Source: Bacteroidales bacterium KA00251 (GTDB lineage Bacteria; Bacteroidota; Bacteroidia; Bacteroidales; Porphyromonadaceae). Taken from it: a stretch of 51,444 bases of DNA. Where the stretch lies: positions 165,442 through 216,885 of the forward strand of contig KQ959279.1 in the NCBI GenBank assembly GCA_001552775.1, read 5' to 3'. Both the position numbers and the translations under genes were made by a program. Below the pieces are notes generated by a model. That model did no database searches, was not told where the DNA came from, and worked only from the letters and a program-made list of their open reading frames with translations. Shown here in pieces: positions 420-51,434 of the stretch (positions within the stretch are counted from its first letter, which is position 1; each line of letters opens with the position of its first letter).

Positions 420-3400
420 CTAGAAGACTAGCTTGGTACGTGCTCCAGCACAAACGGCAATGTAAGTACCTTCTGCAAGAGACAACTCTTCGCTATAGTC
501 ATTGCTAGTAGGACGAATTTGATAAAGGAGTCTACCTGACAAGTCATAGAGACTTACCAATACCCCCTGGGCATTTTTCACCGTAAGTTTATTGCCAGCA
601 AGGAACAACTCTGGCATTTCTCCGCGGATTACACCTTCATTGCCTTCAGGATTGGTAGTGTCGCCGATATTGTCGATTGCGAGGTAGGTAGGAGTCACTA
701 AACCATATTCATTCTTTACGTTTCCATCTACCGTAAAGGTGAGGCTCTTGACATTTCCAAGTTCCTTAAAGCTTACCCACGTCCACTCTTTCAGTACATT
801 CTTTTTGCCATTTCGGTAATCGGCAACAGGTATTGTTACACTCTTGCCATTGTCGGCAGTTACTTTTACTTCATAGAAGTGTCCATCTTTGAAGCCTTCG
901 GGAGTGTAGGAGTCTCCTTTCTCTACATGGTTCAGCGTGTACGAGGTAATCGATACATACATTCCGTGAAGAGGCTGTGCTATGAGAGGATCAACTAGCA
1001 TAATGGCATCATCTGCACGATAAGACTTAAAGAATACACCAAAGGACTTACTACCTTCTGCACCATGTCCACTAGGTACATTCCACTGACTTTGCTTGTA
1101 GTCAATGAAGTCTGTCTTCGTAGAGCGACTTACAGAGAATCCACTCCAAGACCCCCACTCAGCATTGTAACTATTATTGAACTTGAACGAACCACTAAAG
1201 AAAGGTTTCTTGATACGGTAGTATGCCTCTTCTCCTTCCTCATCATTGAGGGGTTCTTCAAAGGTAGCCATAGCAGGTGTACCATCCGTAGGATTTACCA
1301 CTACAAAGAAAGAGTTGCTAAGCTCTCTACCGATTTCGTCTGTTATCTTTAAGCGAACTTCAGAAGTGGCCTTGCACGTTAGTGCAGCTACAGGTACGGT
1401 AGGTGTCCACACTTCGTCTAGAGTGATATCCTTTTTATCGGCAGTCACGACTACCTTATAAGGTACAGCAGCATTCAAAGTCTTCACTTCAGGCAAAGCA
1501 TTTTCGCCTTCCTTGACAATTATATCCTTCAATTCAGCAAAGGTAGGAGCCTCGGGAGCATAACCGAAGTTGTCAATAGCTACTTTGCTACCGCCTTCAA
1601 TAGAAAGGACTTTAATCAGCCCTAAACTTTCAAGACCTACAAGTACAAAATCTTTGTCGTCGGCAAGTTTGAGGATTCGCTTTTTAGCGAGATCTGTGGT
1701 AAGCACGACTTCACCCTTACCTCTAATGAGCATGGACTTAATGAGCAAGCCCTTAGTGGTATTGGTAAGCAGAACTTCACCCTTTGTTCCATCTGCACGT
1801 GTAGCTACTCCATTGGTACCCTCTTTGGCTACTGCAAAACCTGTAAATTGCATGGTACCATCAGCAAAGGGTTTCCCTTCTTGGTAGTTTTTCACATCGT
1901 CGAAAGAGGCTGGTTGAGTAGGTAGTTCAGGCGTTTCAAAAGGTATGATAGTGATCAGCTCACTTGTCTTGTCTTCAGAGAGAGCCTTCAACACCCCATA
2001 GAGCTTATATTGTGTATTCGCTTCAAGCTCATTGAGTACAATTTCTTCTTTGGTACCAGCAATACAAGTGATTGGATCAAGTGCCAATAGAGCATCTTTT
2101 GTTGGAGCCTCTTCAGTTGCTTTTACCGCTTGGTAATACAACTTTGAAGAACGCTCAGCTACGAAGCTGATCGTAGCAGAGTTTTCAGTAGTAGCCACTA
2201 CTGTAGGCTCCTTGAGTTTTAGCTCCTTGTCGTAGTCATTTACATATTCATAGGCACCAACAGTAGGATGTTCCTTACTTCTTGGAAGGTCAGTAATATC
2301 TGTGGCTACTTCTTCCATCGGCTCACCTACATTGAATGCTTGTCCATCCTTTAGAGCTGCACTCTTAGGATCAAGGAAGGTCGGTTGTAGGAAGACAGAC
2401 TTATCATCGGTCATTCTTGCTTTCCAATCATCGAAGTTGCATTCAAAGTTAGTTACCCTGTTATCTGGATCCTTGTACTGATAGACAAAAGGCTTTTCAC
2501 TAGGACCATAATATCCATTGTGACTTACCTTCACAATCTCTTGACCGCTAAAATTGATAATAGCACCCTTTCTACTATTATAGAAGAGGTTGTTTTTTAT
2601 TACCAGATTTTTTGAAGTCTGAGCATGAAGACACATGGCAAAGGGATCGTTTTTAAACTCTTCCCCTTCAGCTCGCTCTGGCGACTCGCCCAATTCTAGA
2701 CGAATCGTATTGTGAGCAATTGTAAGGTTTTTGATCTCAGGATCTGAGAAGAAAATTCCTTTTATGCCAGGATATCTTATTGTCTTCTCATTGGCAGGGT
2801 TGGATATCACTGCACTATTATTCGCAAAGAGAGTTGAGCCCTTGTAAACCTGCTTCGCTGTAGACTTGCGAAGGAAGAAAGCAATGATACGGCTATGTTT
2901 TTCGGCAACGAGAGAGTTGTTTAGAATCTTCTCATTAGCTCCAGACAGCATTACGTCCATAGCCCATAGCTCGGCCGTAGGATTGTCTATGTTGAAGATC
3001 ATCTTGTTACCTTCAATCAAAAGGTCTTCACAAGCTCCAGTACTTGTATAGATCATCTTCGAGTAGGCGTTTTCAAATTGGTTGTTTCTAACAACTATTC
3101 CTCTAGGATTCTTGAAACTTACATTTCGTACTGGACTAATGCCTAGAGCAATTGAGCCTCCTTCGAAGCGGTTACCTTCAATCGTTACGAAGTCGCACTG
3201 GGAGAAGTTCTTTGCTCCTCCTACAACGTTTACTCCACCAAATCGACCGCTATACTGACTTGGCTCCTTCTTTTGAGATAAGATAACGCAATTTTTAAGC
3301 GTAAAATGCGAAGAGCCATTCGTTACAAAGAGGACATTGTCTGCAACTTTGACTGTAGACTTGAGAGTAAGCGCTTCCAAAGTAACATAAGGGGTATCAT

Positions 3401-6400
3401 CAATGATAAAGAGTCCTTTGGGAGCTCTGTAACCAGCTTCACTAGCATCAGCCTTATGAGTAATTGTTACATCTTGAGCCTTGCCCGTCTTACTGATAAA
3501 CTTGATAGGATTGTTGGCAGAGGCACCAGGTATGCCTTCCATTTTAAACATTCCTTCGTAAACACCAGCACAGAGCTGGAATGTAACGGGACCAGACACA
3601 CCAGCCTTCAGAGCCTTGAGAGCATCAGTGAGAGTAGAATATGCGGCTCCCTCTTCTGCCCCTACAATGTATTCACCATTAAGACCTTCTTTGATTGCCA
3701 CTAGAGCCTTTTTGTCGGTAATGGCCTCGTCTCCAAGTTGTGTAAGTGTAACTGCGACTTCACCACCTTCTACACTCTCTTTGGGAGCATCTATAGACAC
3801 AAAGCCATATACCTCACCATTGAGCTCGTAAAGATTTTCATCTTGAATTAGGAAAACATCGCTTCCTTCTTGTTTTACACCTTCTACAGTTTGCAATCCC
3901 TTAGAGAAGAGATTTTCTTTGCCTGCAAAGCTTAAATGTACAGCAGCAGCATGGGGTGCAGACACCTTGATTGCAGGAAGCTTTGCTCCTTTATTTTCGC
4001 CTTGAATAGTAAAAGCCAAGTCGAACACGGGGATGTACGTCTGACCATAGAGTGCCTCTTGCTTGTCTCTTGCTGTGGACGTTACCTTTGTAACCTTTCT
4101 TTCAGAAGGGACTTTTGATGTTACATCTATCTTCCAACCAGACTGTTTAAGACTGCGAGATACTTTCTTTTCAATTTTCACTGTAAGAGCACCTCCTTGT
4201 GCAAGTGTACCCCAGCAAAAGTTTTGTGGAACCTTATTGTCAATCTCTAGAATTAGCTTATCATCATCGACCTTTGTTCCATCATAAATAAACATTTTGC
4301 AGGTACGGAGGAGTTCTATTTCCTTGATGTCAAACACAACGATTTCACCCTCTTTGGCAGGGAGGAAAGTAACGACAGTTTCGTATTTATCCTCAGTCAT
4401 GTTGCCGTCAGAGCCACCTTCATCGGTGTAAAGAATAGAAGTTCCTTCAGATAGCTTATAGGTCTTAGGAGCTCCAGAAGTATGCTGTTCTACAATATTG
4501 ACAAAGTTCTTTTCAATAGGAGTTGAAGGCGCTGCAACTTCAAAAGGATCTTCACCTTTTATGGTAAGTTTGGTAAAGCGATAAGATAGCTTGCTGTCTC
4601 CTTTTGCCGCGTCATTAGCGATAACCTTTAAGACAAAAGTATTAGGACCCTCTACTACAGAAAGAGGATTTTCGGTAGAAAAGGCAAAGCTCAATAAATC
4701 TGAAGAAGAGGAAGAAGCGACTTCACTTACTAGCTTTTCTTCACTACCAATTACTTGATAGAGCTTATACTGCTTAGCAAGGCTATGGTTTCCTTTGGCT
4801 TCAACTTCGATGCTTTCGTAAATACGAGGAGAGGCGTAGCTTGCTGCACTGAGCTCTAGTTTTGCAATAGGAGCCTCTTCTGTACTGAGTAGAGAAACAA
4901 AGGTATTTCCAAGAGCTTCTTGCTGGATTTGTTTGACTCCTATACGTGGCGCTTTTACCGCAGATGCCGTAGCCTTCCAACCTTTTCCAGAATAGCCACC
5001 TTTTATGTTTATGACTACTGTCATTGTACGACCTGAAGAGAAAAGTGTTTCTCCTGGTCCTACAGACTTATTGTCTTTTGTGGCTTTCCACAGCAAAGGA
5101 GCCGTAGCATCTGCTCCATCATAAACAGTAAACTCAGGCGTATTTCCATAGCTAGGAAAATTGAGTTCAAAGCTTGCAAAATTAAGTGTTACGACATCAC
5201 CTTCGTTGGGAGCCGTGAATGTAATGATTCGTTGTCCAGCATCAGTTGTATAGTTATCACTATACTTTCCTCTTTCATGGACAAACTGCCACGGGGAGTA
5301 TAAGGTTACATTTTGTGAACCGATTGTAGCGACAACTGTATTTTCAATTTTTCCTGTTATTTCTGTGCTCTCTGCAGGACTCTTTTGCGTGCCCTTTACA
5401 CTCTTTACTTCAACGAGGGAGAGTTTATAAGTGGCACCGCTTTCACACTTATCGTTGATCGAAACTTGGATCGAGAAAGTGTTTTTATTTTGTCCTAATG
5501 CAAAGGGAGTAGCAAGTTTAATCTCTGCAGTCGAAGCATTGTCTAGTCCTGTCGCTCGTCCTAGTTCTTTTGTCCCAGTAGCATTGTAGATTGCTATTTC
5601 AGAAATAGGTCCTTCAAGTTTGAAGGATAGAGAGGACAACTCTAGTGGAGCAGCACTATACTGAGTAGTAATACCGAGTGTAGCTACTTCTACATTTTTT
5701 GAAATCGCAGAAAGGGGGTTATCTAGTTTTTTAGGAGTAACAGCAACCTCTTTAAAAGCCATGGGCTGAGGTACCTCTGCCTTTACGGTAGCAACAAATC
5801 CAGCCTTTGTATAAGCTGTAATACTTTTTAGCGTTACCAATAGGCTACCATCCTCAGCAGTTGAGTATACAGTTCCAAGCTCTTTAAGGAAAGTTTGCAT
5901 CAAAGAAGCAGTAGCGAGATCGCTTCCACTATATACCTTAAGAATATCATTTTTGCCTACAGATGAGGTATCAAAAAGTTGGAGATTGGTAAACTCAATG
6001 ACCACTTTCTTTGAAGGATCTGCAGGTTTAAAAATTGTCTTCCCCTGGAAGTTGTTGCTTATATTACCATTCGCTCCTCCATCATCATAGAAGGTAAGAG
6101 GTTGATCTACGATATAGATTGAAGAAGGCGCTTCCATAAAAGCTTCAGGGACAAGTGTGAGTTTACAGCTCTTAGCTGGCTCTAATTTCTTTTCCCCTGT
6201 ACCAAGGGTAATACTTTCTATGGATAGAGTCTTTTCAGCATTCTTTGCAACAGAGGGATCTACATCGCCTTTGATAATAATGGGAGTAGTTCCAATATTG
6301 AGGAGTGTAGCAGGTACCTCTCCACTTGTGGGGTCAAACGCTACAGCATCCTTTTTTCCAACTATCACTTTAAGATTTGAGAAAGCATTATCCAATCCTT

Positions 6401-7043
6401 TTATCTTTAACGACTTCAGTTCAAGAGGATTCTCATTGCCTTCTGTGATGATATCAAAAGCAAGTACAGTTGCTTGCTTTTTCCCAATTGATACTCGAGG
6501 TGCTTCTTCATGGAACTTAACCTCTTTGTAGGTCATTGGACCTGCCACAGGCTGCGTCACTTCTGCAACAAGGTCGCATCCATAAACTGACTTCAGCACC
6601 AAAGTAATCACACCATCCGCACTGCTACTTTGGAAAGAAGCAGGGATATCGTTTGGTGTGAGTACACGCTCAGCTCTAGGGATACTATTGTCTGTACCTC
6701 CAAAGCCGTCATCTTCCTCATCCCACTGTTTTACTCCACTGTAGAGATGGAGTTGTGGCTCACCAAATCTACCCTTGCTAAAGGTAGTGATCTTAATAGT
6801 AAGAGGGAGCCCAGGTTGAGCAGGTTTAAGTCTCACCATAGAGGTGACACTTTTAGATGATTTACTGACTCCACCGGAATCGTAGAGCGTGAGATTCCCG
6901 TCTACAGTATACTCTCTTACTTGCCAGTCTGTCTCCGGCATAGTTGCCGTTGTTTGGGCATAGAGAGCAGCTGTAGACCAGAAGCCTAAAGAAACGACAA
7001 GCACGGTGAGCAACCGACTTATCGATAGTAGATTTCGCTTCAT
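420..7043 (-). CDS. Giant T9SS-secreted surface protein with CUB-like, beta-helix, FN3 and DUF4465 domains; candidate cobamide-binding protein
   Basis: The protein has 2207 residues. It starts with a signal peptide (about 1-30, ending ALYAQ). Four CUB-like domains follow at about 42-160, 308-425, 572-695 and 858-975 (motifs such as YDDGG, YTDEGG, VYDGAD, IYDGTK). Beta-sandwich linkers between them resemble sialidase N-terminal modules. A pectin-lyase-like right-handed beta-helix spans about 1120-1605, an FN3-like domain 1608-1705, a DUF4465-like domain 1927-2128 (WGSWSGFSVS, TPTYLAIDNI) and a T9SS type A sorting domain the last 75 residues (LYDLSGRLLY, GTYIAV). A cobalamin riboswitch occupies the leader, so expression should fall when cobalamin is plentiful. 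I recall DUF4465 from surface B12-binding proteins (BtuH) of Bacteroides. Cobamide capture is therefore my inference; adhesion or glycan binding by the other domains is equally open. No btuB-like partner is in the window. Confidence 0.85.
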   Translation of the reverse strand: MKRNLLSISRLLTVLVVSLGFWSTAALYAQTTATMPETDWQVREYTVDGNLTLYDSGGVSKSSKSVTSMVRLKPAQPGLPLTIKITTFSKGRFGEPQLHLYSGVKQWDEEDDGFGGTDNSIPRAERVLTPNDIPASFQSSSADGVITLVLKSVYGCDLVAEVTQPVAGPMTYKEVKFHEEAPRVSIGKKQATVLAFDIITEGNENPLELKSLKIKGLDNAFSNLKVIVGKKDAVAFDPTSGEVPATLLNIGTTPIIIKGDVDPSVAKNAEKTLSIESITLGTGEKKLEPAKSCKLTLVPEAFMEAPSSIYIVDQPLTFYDDGGANGNISNNFQGKTIFKPADPSKKVVIEFTNLQLFDTSSVGKNDILKVYSGSDLATASLMQTFLKELGTVYSTAEDGSLLVTLKSITAYTKAGFVATVKAEVPQPMAFKEVAVTPKKLDNPLSAISKNVEVATLGITTQYSAAPLELSSLSFKLEGPISEIAIYNATGTKELGRATGLDNASTAEIKLATPFALGQNKNTFSIQVSINDKCESGATYKLSLVEVKSVKGTQKSPAESTEITGKIENTVVATIGSQNVTLYSPWQFVHERGKYSDNYTTDAGQRIITFTAPNEGDVVTLNFASFELNFPSYGNTPEFTVYDGADATAPLLWKATKDNKSVGPGETLFSSGRTMTVVINIKGGYSGKGWKATASAVKAPRIGVKQIQQEALGNTFVSLLSTEEAPIAKLELSAASYASPRIYESIEVEAKGNHSLAKQYKLYQVIGSEEKLVSEVASSSSSDLLSFAFSTENPLSVVEGPNTFVLKVIANDAAKGDSKLSYRFTKLTIKGEDPFEVAAPSTPIEKNFVNIVEQHTSGAPKTYKLSEGTSILYTDEGGSDGNMTEDKYETVVTFLPAKEGEIVVFDIKEIELLRTCKMFIYDGTKVDDDKLILEIDNKVPQNFCWGTLAQGGALTVKIEKKVSRSLKQSGWKIDVTSKVPSERKVTKVTSTARDKQEALYGQTYIPVFDLAFTIQGENKGAKLPAIKVSAPHAAAVHLSFAGKENLFSKGLQTVEGVKQEGSDVFLIQDENLYELNGEVYGFVSIDAPKESVEGGEVAVTLTQLGDEAITDKKALVAIKEGLNGEYIVGAEEGAAYSTLTDALKALKAGVSGPVTFQLCAGVYEGMFKMEGIPGASANNPIKFISKTGKAQDVTITHKADASEAGYRAPKGLFIIDDTPYVTLEALTLKSTVKVADNVLFVTNGSSHFTLKNCVILSQKKEPSQYSGRFGGVNVVGGAKNFSQCDFVTIEGNRFEGGSIALGISPVRNVSFKNPRGIVVRNNQFENAYSKMIYTSTGACEDLLIEGNKMIFNIDNPTAELWAMDVMLSGANEKILNNSLVAEKHSRIIAFFLRKSTAKQVYKGSTLFANNSAVISNPANEKTIRYPGIKGIFFSDPEIKNLTIAHNTIRLELGESPERAEGEEFKNDPFAMCLHAQTSKNLVIKNNLFYNSRKGAIINFSGQEIVKVSHNGYYGPSEKPFVYQYKDPDNRVTNFECNFDDWKARMTDDKSVFLQPTFLDPKSAALKDGQAFNVGEPMEEVATDITDLPRSKEHPTVGAYEYVNDYDKELKLKEPTVVATTENSATISFVAERSSKLYYQAVKATEEAPTKDALLALDPITCIAGTKEEIVLNELEANTQYKLYGVLKALSEDKTSELITIIPFETPELPTQPASFDDVKNYQEGKPFADGTMQFTGFAVAKEGTNGVATRADGTKGEVLLTNTTKGLLIKSMLIRGKGEVVLTTDLAKKRILKLADDKDFVLVGLESLGLIKVLSIEGGSKVAIDNFGYAPEAPTFAELKDIIVKEGENALPEVKTLNAAVPYKVVVTADKKDITLDEVWTPTVPVAALTCKATSEVRLKITDEIGRELSNSFFVVVNPTDGTPAMATFEEPLNDEEGEEAYYRIKKPFFSGSFKFNNSYNAEWGSWSGFSVSRSTKTDFIDYKQSQWNVPSGHGAEGSKSFGVFFKSYRADDAIMLVDPLIAQPLHGMYVSITSYTLNHVEKGDSYTPEGFKDGHFYEVKVTADNGKSVTIPVADYRNGKKNVLKEWTWVSFKELGNVKSLTFTVDGNVKNEYGLVTPTYLAIDNIGDTTNPEGNEGVIRGEMPELFLAGNKLTVKNAQGVLVSLYDLSGRLLYQIRPTSNDYSEELSLAEGTYIAVCAGARTKLVF

Positions 7044-7100
7044 AGGTCTAAATAATAATGATTAATTGTATCTTCAAATAAAAGGATCGCCACCCAGCAT

Positions 7101-7191
7101 TTCGAGGAATACCGAGTAGGCATAACCATGATAAAAGAGAGGTAATCCAAAGAGGTACCGACTCTAGTACTTCACCTTCCTCTTCCTCGAA
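7101..7191 (-). promoter_or_regulatory. Possible expression-platform pairing of the cobalamin riboswitch
   Basis: Between the aptamer and the start codon the minus strand holds TTCGAGGAA (7183-7191) and its exact complement TTCCTCGAA (7101-7109), 73 nt apart. They could close a long hairpin in the leader. There is no clear U-run after it, so if it is the switching element it more likely acts on translation or RNA stability than on termination. The assignment is tentative. Confidence 0.35.
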
Positions 7192-7206
7192 AAAAAGATG
7201 ATTAAA

Positions 7207-7440
7207 CAGAGAAGGCAGGTCTTCCGGCTTTTCCCTGCTTGGATAGTGCCCCTTCTCCCCTCATTCTCCTACTTTCAGGCAACTAGTCTCAAAAATAGAG
7301 ACTAGAGGGAATGGGTTATAGATATACTTCCCAAGCAATTACAGGAAACACGGCAGCGGGACTGCGGAGGATTTACACCTCTCTTCCCTTTTCATCACAC
7401 TCCTCAGAACCGAAGAGGCGACACCTTCTGCTTTCCTCTG
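7207..7440 (-). promoter_or_regulatory. Cobalamin riboswitch
   Basis: Read on the minus strand, the conserved elements appear in the right order. There is a closing helix CAGAGGAA (7433-7440) with TTCTCTG (7207-7213), then AAGGGAAG (7383-7390), then a core TAAATCCTCCGCAGTCCCGC (7357-7376), and the B12 box AGCCGGAAGACCTGCC (7214-7229). Total length of about 234 nt is typical of the class. It lies 160 nt upstream of the giant surface-protein gene on the same strand, and no other gene intervenes. By family knowledge it binds a cobalamin and represses the downstream gene. Confidence 0.93.
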
Positions 7441-7448
7441 CAAAGGTA
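7441..7448 (-). promoter_or_regulatory. -7 promoter box for the riboswitch leader
   Basis: The minus strand reads TACCTTTG, matching the Bacteroidota -7 consensus TAnnTTTG. It directly abuts the 5' end of the aptamer, as expected if the transcript starts with the riboswitch. I cannot identify a convincing -33 TTG at 19-21 nt upstream. Confidence 0.6.
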
Positions 7449-49359: not shown

Positions 49360-51393
49360 TTACCAGTTGAATCGTAAAGTGGTAAGATAAGTTCTTCCTG
49401 GTGTCAGAGGTGTATTGTAAGCAAGTTTGTTGGGCTTATAGCCAAATAGGTTGTCCACGCCAAAGTATAGATCAAACACCTTAAAGATCTTTTGTGAGAT
49501 CCCCAGTTTGGCAAGAGTAGCTGCATTGTAGCTTAGGATCTCAAATTTATTATCTTCCACGCGTACACCCGATTGGAAACCTGAAAGATAACGGATGGCA
49601 AAAGTAGCACTTATGCCGTAATTACGATTGAATGTGTGCTCCCAGGTGAGCATTCCCACAAGTGAATGCGGACGTGTACTAGTAGATAGTACTTTAGACC
49701 CATCTTCCTTATGCATAGGATTCCCTTTATCGTCTTGAAGGGTATAGTAATCGTAGGTATAGGCATAGGATCCTGTAAGGGTAAATCCGTAGGGAAGTTT
49801 AGTCCTTAGATTGAGATCAATCCCATATATCCGATCTTTATTATCGGAAGCAGGGGCATTTGCATATTGATATCCTCCCTTCGTAGGGATCATGGCGATA
49901 CGATTGCGTACAATGTTGTAAAAGGCATTAGCATTAAGCGAAAACATTCTATTGTTATACTCGGCAGAGAGAATAAACATATTGCTTTTTTCTGGCTTTA
50001 GCTTGTCATTGCCATATAGATAAAACATCCCCTGATGGTCAAAGAAGAAATAGAGCTCTTGCATAGAAGGAGTACGATATCCTTGTGCAAAAGAAGCTCT
50101 AAGATTGAGCATAGACACAGGTCTGAATTTCAACGTTACACGATTGGTATAGTGAGTACCAAAGTTACTTCTCATATCCAATCTTCCTCCATAGCTTAGG
50201 GTCAACTCTTTAATGGGTTCATAGCTATATTGTCCGTATACTATACCCGTTTGCATGCTCTTAGCATTAGGAGATTCTGGACTTGCCAGACGAGGAGAAG
50301 CAATTTTATCATGGATAAACTCTCCTCCGAAGTTGAGCATATGCTCTTCGTTGCAGTCAAGGTTGTACTGCAAGCGAAGATGATGAAGAAACTCATTGAA
50401 TACGGGACGTTTCTCGTTATCCAAGAGGATCATCACAGAGTCGCGCTTGAAGTTATTAAAATGATAGGAAAGGTCTAAACTTTGATTGTGATCAATCATA
50501 CAAACAGCCCCCAAGGTAGCATCTGTAGCCATAAAGCTATTGTTGAGATACTTATCCTTTTGCTGCATTCGATAATTGGCATTCACTCCAGCCTTGAGCG
50601 AAATAGCCTTAATGGGTTGGTAAGTAAACTTTTGACTAAAGTTGATGCGATCCACATCAAATACTATATTCCCTGCCCCTTCGTCATCGACAATCACAAA
50701 ACCAGGGGCTTTGTTGTAGCCAATCGTCGTATTACTTCCAAACTTACCTCCCCCAACAGGTCTATTGAATACCACATTGCCCCAATAGCGTTGGCCGACC
50801 AAGGCTTTTTTGTTGTCTCTATTATACTTTGCTACATCCACACTTGCTAGAGCAGAAGCGTGAAATTTTTTCTTAGAAGATTTGGTGATCACATTTACGA
50901 CACCAGCCAAAGCATTAGAGCCATAAAGTGCAGAGGCCGCGCCACGTATAATTTCCACACGTTCAATGTTGTCTGGATCAATGCGATCAAAGTCTATACT
51001 GCTAGTAGATCCTGTAGTAATTAAGTCGCCATCTACCAAAAACAGCAAGCTCTGTCCACCAAATCCCCGATAGGAAAGATTGTCTTGTCCTCCATGCTTG
51101 TTAAACTCCATGCCAGGGAGTGTAAACTCAAGGATCTCATTAAAGCTACGAGGCTCAATAAGTTGGATTTGCTTTTGTGGGATCACCTGTGTCAACACAG
51201 GAATATCCTTATGAAAGCGAGGTGTACGGCTTGCAGTAACTACTACCTCATCTAGGGTTTCAGTCTTTTCTTTTGTATAGCGTGTACTATCCGCAAGCGA
51301 TGCTCGTTTGGAGGCTCTGGGATTTTGCGCAAAAAGAGATAGGGAAGTAATCGAAAGGAGGAAAATAAATAAACCTTGTTGGGCGAGTTTCAT
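49360..51393 (-). CDS. hmuR: HmuR-like TonB-dependent heme receptor
   Basis: The start is the ATG at 51393, where a signal peptide begins (MKLAQQGLFIFLLS, cleavage after LFAQ); the frame runs on to a TTG at 51423. The 677-residue protein has a TonB box/plug region (ETLDEVVVTASRTP, VEIIRGAASALYGSNALAGVVNVIT) and a 22-strand-type barrel ending RTYLTTLRFNW with terminal Trp. Near 440, YRTPSMQELYFFFDHQ followed by NDKLKPEKSN corresponds to the heme-receptor YRAP and NPDL motifs with a nearby His. It should import heme across the outer membrane. The small heme-binding gene hmuY, normally just upstream, would lie beyond the window edge. Confidence 0.9.
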   Translation of the reverse strand: MKLAQQGLFIFLLSITSLSLFAQNPRASKRASLADSTRYTKEKTETLDEVVVTASRTPRFHKDIPVLTQVIPQKQIQLIEPRSFNEILEFTLPGMEFNKHGGQDNLSYRGFGGQSLLFLVDGDLITTGSTSSIDFDRIDPDNIERVEIIRGAASALYGSNALAGVVNVITKSSKKKFHASALASVDVAKYNRDNKKALVGQRYWGNVVFNRPVGGGKFGSNTTIGYNKAPGFVIVDDEGAGNIVFDVDRINFSQKFTYQPIKAISLKAGVNANYRMQQKDKYLNNSFMATDATLGAVCMIDHNQSLDLSYHFNNFKRDSVMILLDNEKRPVFNEFLHHLRLQYNLDCNEEHMLNFGGEFIHDKIASPRLASPESPNAKSMQTGIVYGQYSYEPIKELTLSYGGRLDMRSNFGTHYTNRVTLKFRPVSMLNLRASFAQGYRTPSMQELYFFFDHQGMFYLYGNDKLKPEKSNMFILSAEYNNRMFSLNANAFYNIVRNRIAMIPTKGGYQYANAPASDNKDRIYGIDLNLRTKLPYGFTLTGSYAYTYDYYTLQDDKGNPMHKEDGSKVLSTSTRPHSLVGMLTWEHTFNRNYGISATFAIRYLSGFQSGVRVEDNKFEILSYNAATLAKLGISQKIFKVFDLYFGVDNLFGYKPNKLAYNTPLTPGRTYLTTLRFNW

Positions 51394-51434
51394 AAGAGAG
51401 AAGCTTTGAGTGTTACGAATCAATTGTGCGTGTA

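What the first reader, a model, noticed from the sequence alone, without database searches (positions are those of the whole stretch)
420..7448. Cobalamin riboswitch controls a giant T9SS-exported DUF4465 protein
Directly seen: a complete cobalamin riboswitch (7207-7440) abuts a -7 box and leads only into a 2207-residue secreted protein. That protein has CUB-like domains, a beta-helix, FN3, a DUF4465-like domain and a T9SS sorting domain. Known: cobalamin riboswitches nearly always control B12 uptake or B12-saving genes, and I recall that DUF4465-type domains occur in BtuH surface B12-binding proteins of Bacteroides. Inference: this is a B12-capture protein displayed by the type IX secretion system rather than as a lipoprotein, fused to adhesin-like modules. 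It may bind cobamides or cobamide carriers from neighbours or the host.
Basis: partly seen in the sequence, partly recalled or inferred. Interest (0 to 1): 0.88.

Follow-up and report, generated by a model that had tools for sequence, protein, structure and literature searches.

The report
Giant vitamin-B12-catching surface protein
A very large protein, probably displayed on the surface of a Porphyromonas-type bacterium, carries a known vitamin-B12-binding domain and sits behind a genetic switch that senses B12; relatives with the same layout and switch turn up in gut, rumen and mouth bacteria, so it looks like a B12-catching device of a size that the papers read here do not describe.

The parts
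7441..7448 (-). TACCTTTG, Bacteroidetes-type -7 promoter box
   Evidence: read in the sequence; motif recalled, no start site measured
7197..7443 (-). cobalamin riboswitch aptamer (RF00174)
   Evidence: cmscan 71.6 bits vs cut-off 31.5, E 8.7e-16; again in the genome search
7090..7119 (-). possible terminator-like hairpin between aptamer and start codon (candidate expression platform)
   Evidence: 12-pair stem, 4 of them G-C, then a T-rich tail; leader folding not better than shuffles, z -0.74; weak
420..7043 (-). 2207-aa giant BtuJ-type (DUF4465) secreted protein
   Evidence: ORF, domains, family alignment A1
6954..7043 (-). N-terminal signal peptide without lipobox cysteine
   Evidence: by eye from the translation, no Cys in the first 60 residues; no signal-peptide program was run
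6579..6911 (-). CUB-like module 1 (res 45-155)
   Evidence: self-HMM i-E 6.2e-5; weak
5769..6131 (-). CUB-like module 2 (res 305-425)
   Evidence: seed of the self-HMM; overlaps the Pfam CUB match E 0.0021
4956..5324 (-). CUB-like module 3 (res 574-696)
   Evidence: self-HMM i-E 2e-4; weak
4122..4472 (-). CUB-like module 4 (res 858-974)
   Evidence: self-HMM i-E 2.1e-11
4494..4823 (-). BNR_assoc_N-like module (res 741-850); a second, weaker one at res 480-553
   Evidence: PF14873 matches 8 of 9 genus members but is not in the list for the window protein itself; self-HMM with this stretch as seed
2517..3206 (-). right-handed beta-helix region (res 1280-1509)
   Evidence: PF05048/PF13229, below cut-off in the window protein; PF13229 at E up to 0.01 in 9 of 9 members
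1539..1925 (-). degenerate DUF4465-like domain (about res 1707-1835) without the HI-loop motif
   Evidence: hhalign against the DUF4465 region, probability 97.7, E 7.4e-12 for a single comparison
660..1271 (-). DUF4465 / BtuJ B12-binding domain (about res 1925-2128)
939..941 (-). Tyr2035, equivalent of BtuJ1 Tyr146 at the start of the DE-loop helix
   Evidence: profile alignment to 9fct (residue numbers counted by hand along the printed chain); model helix 120-128 = res 2034-2042
684..686 (-). Tyr2120, equivalent of BtuJ1 Tyr245 in the HI loop (TPTY)
   Evidence: Tyr in 52 of 54 rows of A3
456..587 (-). T9SS type A sorting tail (res 2153-2196)
   Evidence: TIGR04183 22.0 bits in whole protein, 24.9 for tail alone, cut-off 23

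Best explanation
The locus is a B12-repressed scavenging gene. When cellular cobamide is low the riboswitch lets the giant gene be expressed (inferred from the known class). The 2207-residue product leaves the cell, most likely through the type IX system, and stays on the surface or on vesicles (inferred). Four CUB-like modules with Ig-like modules between them and a beta-helix act as a long stalk or adhesive arm (inferred). Near the far end a BtuJ-type (DUF4465) jelly roll holds one cobamide in a loop pocket headed by Tyr2035 and Tyr2120 (fold predicted and residues shown, binding inferred). The captured cobamide is then handed to BtuG-BtuB and on to BtuFCD for import (inferred). The genome has BtuB, BtuG and a BtuFCD-like set at other loci, and five of the homologous loci encode BtuB, BtuG, BtuH and the giant in a row behind one riboswitch (shown by sequence).
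For: Riboswitch. DUF4465; fold match to B12-bound 9hmu/9fct far above the rest. Of the residues reported for BtuJ1, W78, Y97, Y146, T242 and Y245 correspond to W1963, Y1982, Y2035, T2117 and Y2120 (residue list from PMC12751083 section 7; alignments; W1963 and Y1982 placed by eye). Conservation: 72 of 75 loci with upstream DNA have a riboswitch upstream on the same strand, and all 84 R1 matches in the 78 loci lie on the giant's strand. Rfam's own model finds RF00174 somewhere in 10 of 10 and 50 of 50 of the source genomes that I submitted, and upstream of the BtuH-giant pair in 5 of the 8 genus loci scanned. Operons with BtuH, and in 5 loci BtuB-BtuG-BtuH. Own genome: BtuB, BtuG, BtuFCD-like, a protein with a B12-binding domain, SprA.
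Against: No binding or expression data. Contact residue Asn241 of BtuJ1 is Val2116 here. At the Tyr146 position the eight other genus members have Trp; over 54 rows it is Tyr in 37, Trp in 14, others in 3. 17 of 26 genus genomes have no DUF4465 at all, and 3 of the 9 with the giant have no riboswitch at it. One complete relative with a riboswitch lacks DUF4465 (L096), so the arm may have a role of its own. The T9SS tail is borderline, and only 19 of 71 tails match TIGR04183 at E 0.01. No convincing expression platform. BtuB and BtuG of this genome have no riboswitch match of their own.
Confidence: 0.82

Rival explanations
1. The giant is mainly an adhesin or matrix-binding protein that binds host or polysaccharide surfaces; DUF4465 only senses or stores B12, and the riboswitch ties adhesion to B12 shortage.
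For: About three quarters of the length (to about residue 1600) is CUB-like, Ig-like and beta-helix modules, kept across relatives; L096 keeps riboswitch and modules but not DUF4465.
Against: DUF4465 is kept in 71 of 78 loci and 6 of the 7 others are cut by a contig end; operons with BtuB, BtuG, BtuH.
Confidence: 0.1
2. The domain binds a different ligand (for example a sugar) and the riboswitch is incidental, or the domain has lost B12 binding in this species.
Confidence: 0.06
3. The giant is not a T9SS cargo; it stays in the periplasm or leaves by another route.
For: The tail model score straddles its cut-off; 52 of 71 tails do not match TIGR04183 at E 0.01.
Against: SprA/Sov homologue in the genome; 9 of 9 genus members match TIGR04183 at E up to 0.01. 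A lipoprotein is unlikely: no lipobox.
Confidence: 0.12

Closest known systems
BtuJ1 / BtuJ2 of Bacteroides thetaiotaomicron (BT_1491, BT_1957; PDB 9FCT, 9I2L)
   Same: DUF4465 augmented jelly roll, DE-helix and HI-loop tyrosines, cobalamin-riboswitch control, association with btuB/btuG/btuH
   Different: BtuJ1/2 are small lipoproteins in multi-gene operons; here the domain is about a tenth of a 2207-aa multi-module protein, near its end, with a T9SS-like tail, and is the only gene of at least 110 aa close behind its riboswitch
D5EK51 of Coraliomargarita akajimensis (PDB 9HMU)
   Different: single-domain protein of about 250 residues
BtuH2 (PDB 7BIZ) and the BtuG1 H-domain (8BLW)
   Same: B12-binding surface protein under B12 riboswitches; a BtuH homologue lies near the giant in 27 of 78 loci
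   Different: different domain; the window protein has no BtuH match
DUF4465 proteins with a C-terminal sorting domain (229 of 824 with IPR026444, PMC12751083)
   Same: DUF4465 plus sorting tail
   Different: that paper gives counts; the sections and passages I read describe no giant multi-module architecture, riboswitch link or operon for them. PMC13398666 instead calls over 70% of the family lipoproteins and the rest periplasmic, so the two papers differ on targeting

Membership tests
Cobalamin riboswitch (RF00174) | covariance-model score over the gathering cut-off, full model | tested here: met
   71.6 vs 31.5 bits, positions 1-189
Cobalamin riboswitch (RF00174) | expression platform that couples the aptamer to the gene | tested here: inconclusive
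   terminator-like hairpin 7119-7090, leader fold z -0.74
Cobalamin riboswitch (RF00174) | cobamide-dependent repression | not testable with these tools
   needs a reporter or RT-qPCR
DUF4465 / BtuJ | PF14717 over its curated cut-off | tested here: met
   118.1 vs 25 bits
DUF4465 / BtuJ | augmented beta-jellyroll fold | tested here: met
DUF4465 / BtuJ | HI-loop Tyr and DE-helix Tyr | tested here: met
   Y2120 and Y2035
DUF4465 / BtuJ | conserved hydrogen-bonding Asn241 (BtuJ1 numbering) | tested here: not met
   Val2116; Thr in 25 and Asn in 19 of 54 rows, so the position varies among the giants. The papers read name the HI tyrosine, not this Asn, as the hallmark
DUF4465 / BtuJ | binds cobamide | not testable with these tools
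   needs ITC or co-purification
BtuH | BtuH B12-binding domain (7BIZ) | tested here: not met
   phmmer of the whole protein against PDB sequences at E up to 1: 6 hits, all at the DUF4465 region, none 7BIZ; by sequence only
T9SS type A cargo | C-terminal sorting domain TIGR04183 over cut-off 23 | tested here: inconclusive
   22.0 in the whole protein, 24.9 for the tail alone
T9SS type A cargo | T9SS translocon in the same genome | tested here: met
   SprA_N PF14349 E 9.5e-194 in a 2521-aa frame; other T9SS parts not searched
DUF4465 surface lipoprotein | lipobox cysteine | tested here: not met
   no Cys in the first 60 residues

The most novel reading that the evidence does not exclude
Giant BtuJ is a distinct class of B12-acquisition machine in Bacteroidales: a long surface arm whose CUB-like/Ig-like/beta-helix part grips a second partner (a host B12 carrier such as haptocorrin, vesicle or matrix polysaccharide, or a producer cell) while the BtuJ head strips and holds the cobamide, so that one polypeptide couples 'where B12 is' to 'who imports it'.
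Probability: 0.15. Interest if true: 0.85.

Novelty: new variant of a known kind. Interest (0 to 1): 0.56.

Why it matters
The BtuJ proteins studied so far are small, and in B. thetaiotaomicron they are lipoproteins that load B12 onto vesicles. Here the same domain is the head of a protein of about 2200 residues, kept with its riboswitch in Porphyromonas, Prevotella and Hoylesella, Muribaculaceae and other Bacteroidales, in some loci beside btuB, btuG and btuH. That adds a large secreted format to B12 scavenging in mouth, gut and rumen bacteria, gives a likely function to large proteins with a sorting tail that would otherwise read as adhesins, and poses a testable question: what the kept arm of about 1,600 residues is for.

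Tried and rejected
BtuH membership: no sequence match. A scan of genome contigs with the window protein alone found nothing, probably because its peptide patterns were too specific; repeated with alignment A1 it gave 78 loci. My regular-expression riboswitch search recovered only 24 of 31 known elements (0 hits in shuffled loci), so the counts in this report use the covariance model R1; R1 has only 20 base pairs and is mostly a sequence model, hence the Rfam checks. T9SS tails of the BtuH neighbours: no T9SS model hit in 10 proteins, so I make no such claim (my note did). My hand sorting of tail types is not used as evidence. Leader fold as expression platform: not better than shuffles. The second riboswitch of the genome (C26) has no ORF of 100 aa or more on its strand behind it, so it did not help to define a regulon. 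Of 14 TonB-receptor plugs in the genome I looked at 10 by NCBIfam and two by PDB sequence: L132 matches the colicin I receptor first, the window's own receptor (49360-51423) heme receptors first, L137 BtuB1.

A3 uses the window and 53 of the 71 DUF4465-bearing loci; A4 the window and 70 of 71 tails. Dropped before the riboswitch count: 3 of 78 loci whose giant starts at a contig end (L089, L101, L109). CUB-module counts use a model whose seed includes the window protein and a threshold of domain E 0.01. Print status: searched only; supplements not read, subscription journals and preprints not held.
Full report
What was checked. The window holds exactly one Rfam match, a complete cobalamin riboswitch at 7197-7443 on the minus strand (71.6 bits, cut-off 31.5, E 8.7e-16). 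A TACCTTTG box ends at 7441. The gene behind it, 420-7043 (-), encodes 2207 residues. Its C-terminal part has DUF4465 at 1962-2126 (E 7.1e-34). CUB and beta-helix matches are below Pfam's cut-offs in this protein alone. The T9SS tail model gives 22.0 bits in the whole protein and 24.9 for the tail alone, cut-off 23. The next same-strand ORF of at least 110 aa lies 886 nt further on.

Where it lies. The window is part of a 1.86-Mb genome in 34 contigs. It has two cobalamin riboswitches and one DUF4465.

Conservation in the genus. 9 of 26 genus genomes have DUF4465, each in a frame of 2181-2502 aa; 17 have none. A riboswitch lies upstream in 6 of the 9: here directly, in the five others in front of a gene of about 370-390 aa that precedes the giant. 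That gene's product, tested for L018, matches BtuH (E 6e-46 to 7biz, 3e-55 to the BtuG1 chain with its H-domain, 8blw_B). In one of the three without riboswitch the giant is followed by a Peripla_BP_2 and a FecCD gene, the BtuF/BtuC type.

Conservation beyond the genus. The scan of genome contigs with alignment A1 gave 78 loci, by title nearly all Bacteroidales (Porphyromonas, Prevotella, Hoylesella, Bacteroides salyersiae, Muribaculaceae, Paludibacteraceae and others; one record is titled Clostridium). 71 of 78 have DUF4465 in the giant ORF; six others run off the contig and one, L096, is complete without it. The 68 ORFs with DUF4465 that have both ends measure 1809-2459 aa, median 2166. With my covariance model R1 (19 genus riboswitches that do not precede giants) there are 84 matches in 1.59 Mb, all on the giant's strand. 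Of 75 loci with upstream DNA, 72 have one upstream: 57 within 700 nt, 10 at 0.8-1.5 kb, 5 at 4.3-4.5 kb. The three without are three Porphyromonas-type loci (L051, L052, L069). Rfam's own model finds RF00174 in 10 of 10 and 50 of 50 submitted genomes. In 9 of the 10 loci of the middle group a BtuH homologue fills the gap (L074 is the exception); in the five of the last group the order is riboswitch, BtuB (L087: E 1.5e-136 to BtuB1), BtuG (L087), BtuH, giant. Within the fetched flanks 27 of 78 loci have a BtuH homologue and 15 of 78 both BtuB and BtuG.

Anatomy. Four CUB-like modules (of 71 relatives 53 have four, 17 three, 1 two), BNR_assoc_N-like modules (8 of 9 genus members), a beta-helix, an FN3-like stretch that Pfam sees in 5 of 9 members only, a degenerate DUF4465-like domain (hhalign probability 97.7), the DUF4465 head and the tail. 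In a draw of 393 genomes of the order, 169 have DUF4465; among the matches listed at least 9 have open frames over 1,800 aa and most are under 1,000 (the list is cut), so the giant is a minority format of the family.

Uptake in this genome. BtuB homologue at C32 (E 5e-102 to BtuB1) followed by a BtuG-like protein, a BtuFCD-like cluster at C29 (the ATPase by eye), a BtuH-domain protein at C31 with a lipobox-like start by eye, one protein with a B12-binding domain in a 736-aa frame, SprA. The only RF00174 matches are at the giant and at C26, so none of the other uptake genes has one, and the giant is the only gene of at least 100 aa found behind this switch in a genome judged 95% complete.

How it most likely works. 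Shown: the switch, the domain, its predicted fold, most of its contact residues, the conserved linkage and operons. Inferred: B12-dependent repression, cobamide binding, T9SS export, transfer to BtuG-BtuB. Unknown: the task of the long arm. A stalk or adhesive arm is the simplest guess; a second ligand is possible.

Novelty. Sorting tails on DUF4465 proteins are in print (229 of 824 with IPR026444), while PMC13398666 puts over 70% as lipoproteins and the rest as periplasmic. I found no description of the giant format, of its riboswitch or of its operons in the texts read or in searches. I rate it a new variant of a known kind.

Noticed in passing
G000 contig C26:118345-118639 (-), L004:9846-10140: Second cobalamin riboswitch of the genome (75 bits) has no ORF of 100 aa or more on its strand behind it; the next gene (ilvE-like, by eye) is on the other strand. 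It looks like an orphan whose gene was lost.
   Followed up: partly
L096:9821-14137 (Hoylesella loescheii): Riboswitch-led, complete 1438-aa relative of the giant; no DUF4465 match in the three forward frames from 9001 to the end of the locus.
   Followed up: partly
L063 giant C-terminus; L087 and L119 BtuH-like genes: C-termini read like dockerin repeats (by eye, recalled motif) on a giant BtuJ and on two BtuH homologues.
   Followed up: no
window 1539-1925 (-): Degenerate DUF4465-like domain in tandem with the true one, without the HI-loop tyrosine.
   Followed up: partly
L023, L024, L037 (genus riboswitch loci): Cobalamin riboswitches about 300-500 nt in front of a gene that reads like 4-hydroxybutyryl-CoA dehydratase (by eye, recalled), not a usual B12-riboswitch target.
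   Followed up: no
window 49360-51423 (-): TonB-dependent receptor whose best models are heme/haemoglobin receptors, with a B12-receptor model next, all below their cut-offs.
   Followed up: partly
L084:17360-21634 and L107:16076-20335: A second cobalamin riboswitch beyond the giant leads into another protein of about 1420 aa with a signal-peptide-like start by eye.
   Followed up: no
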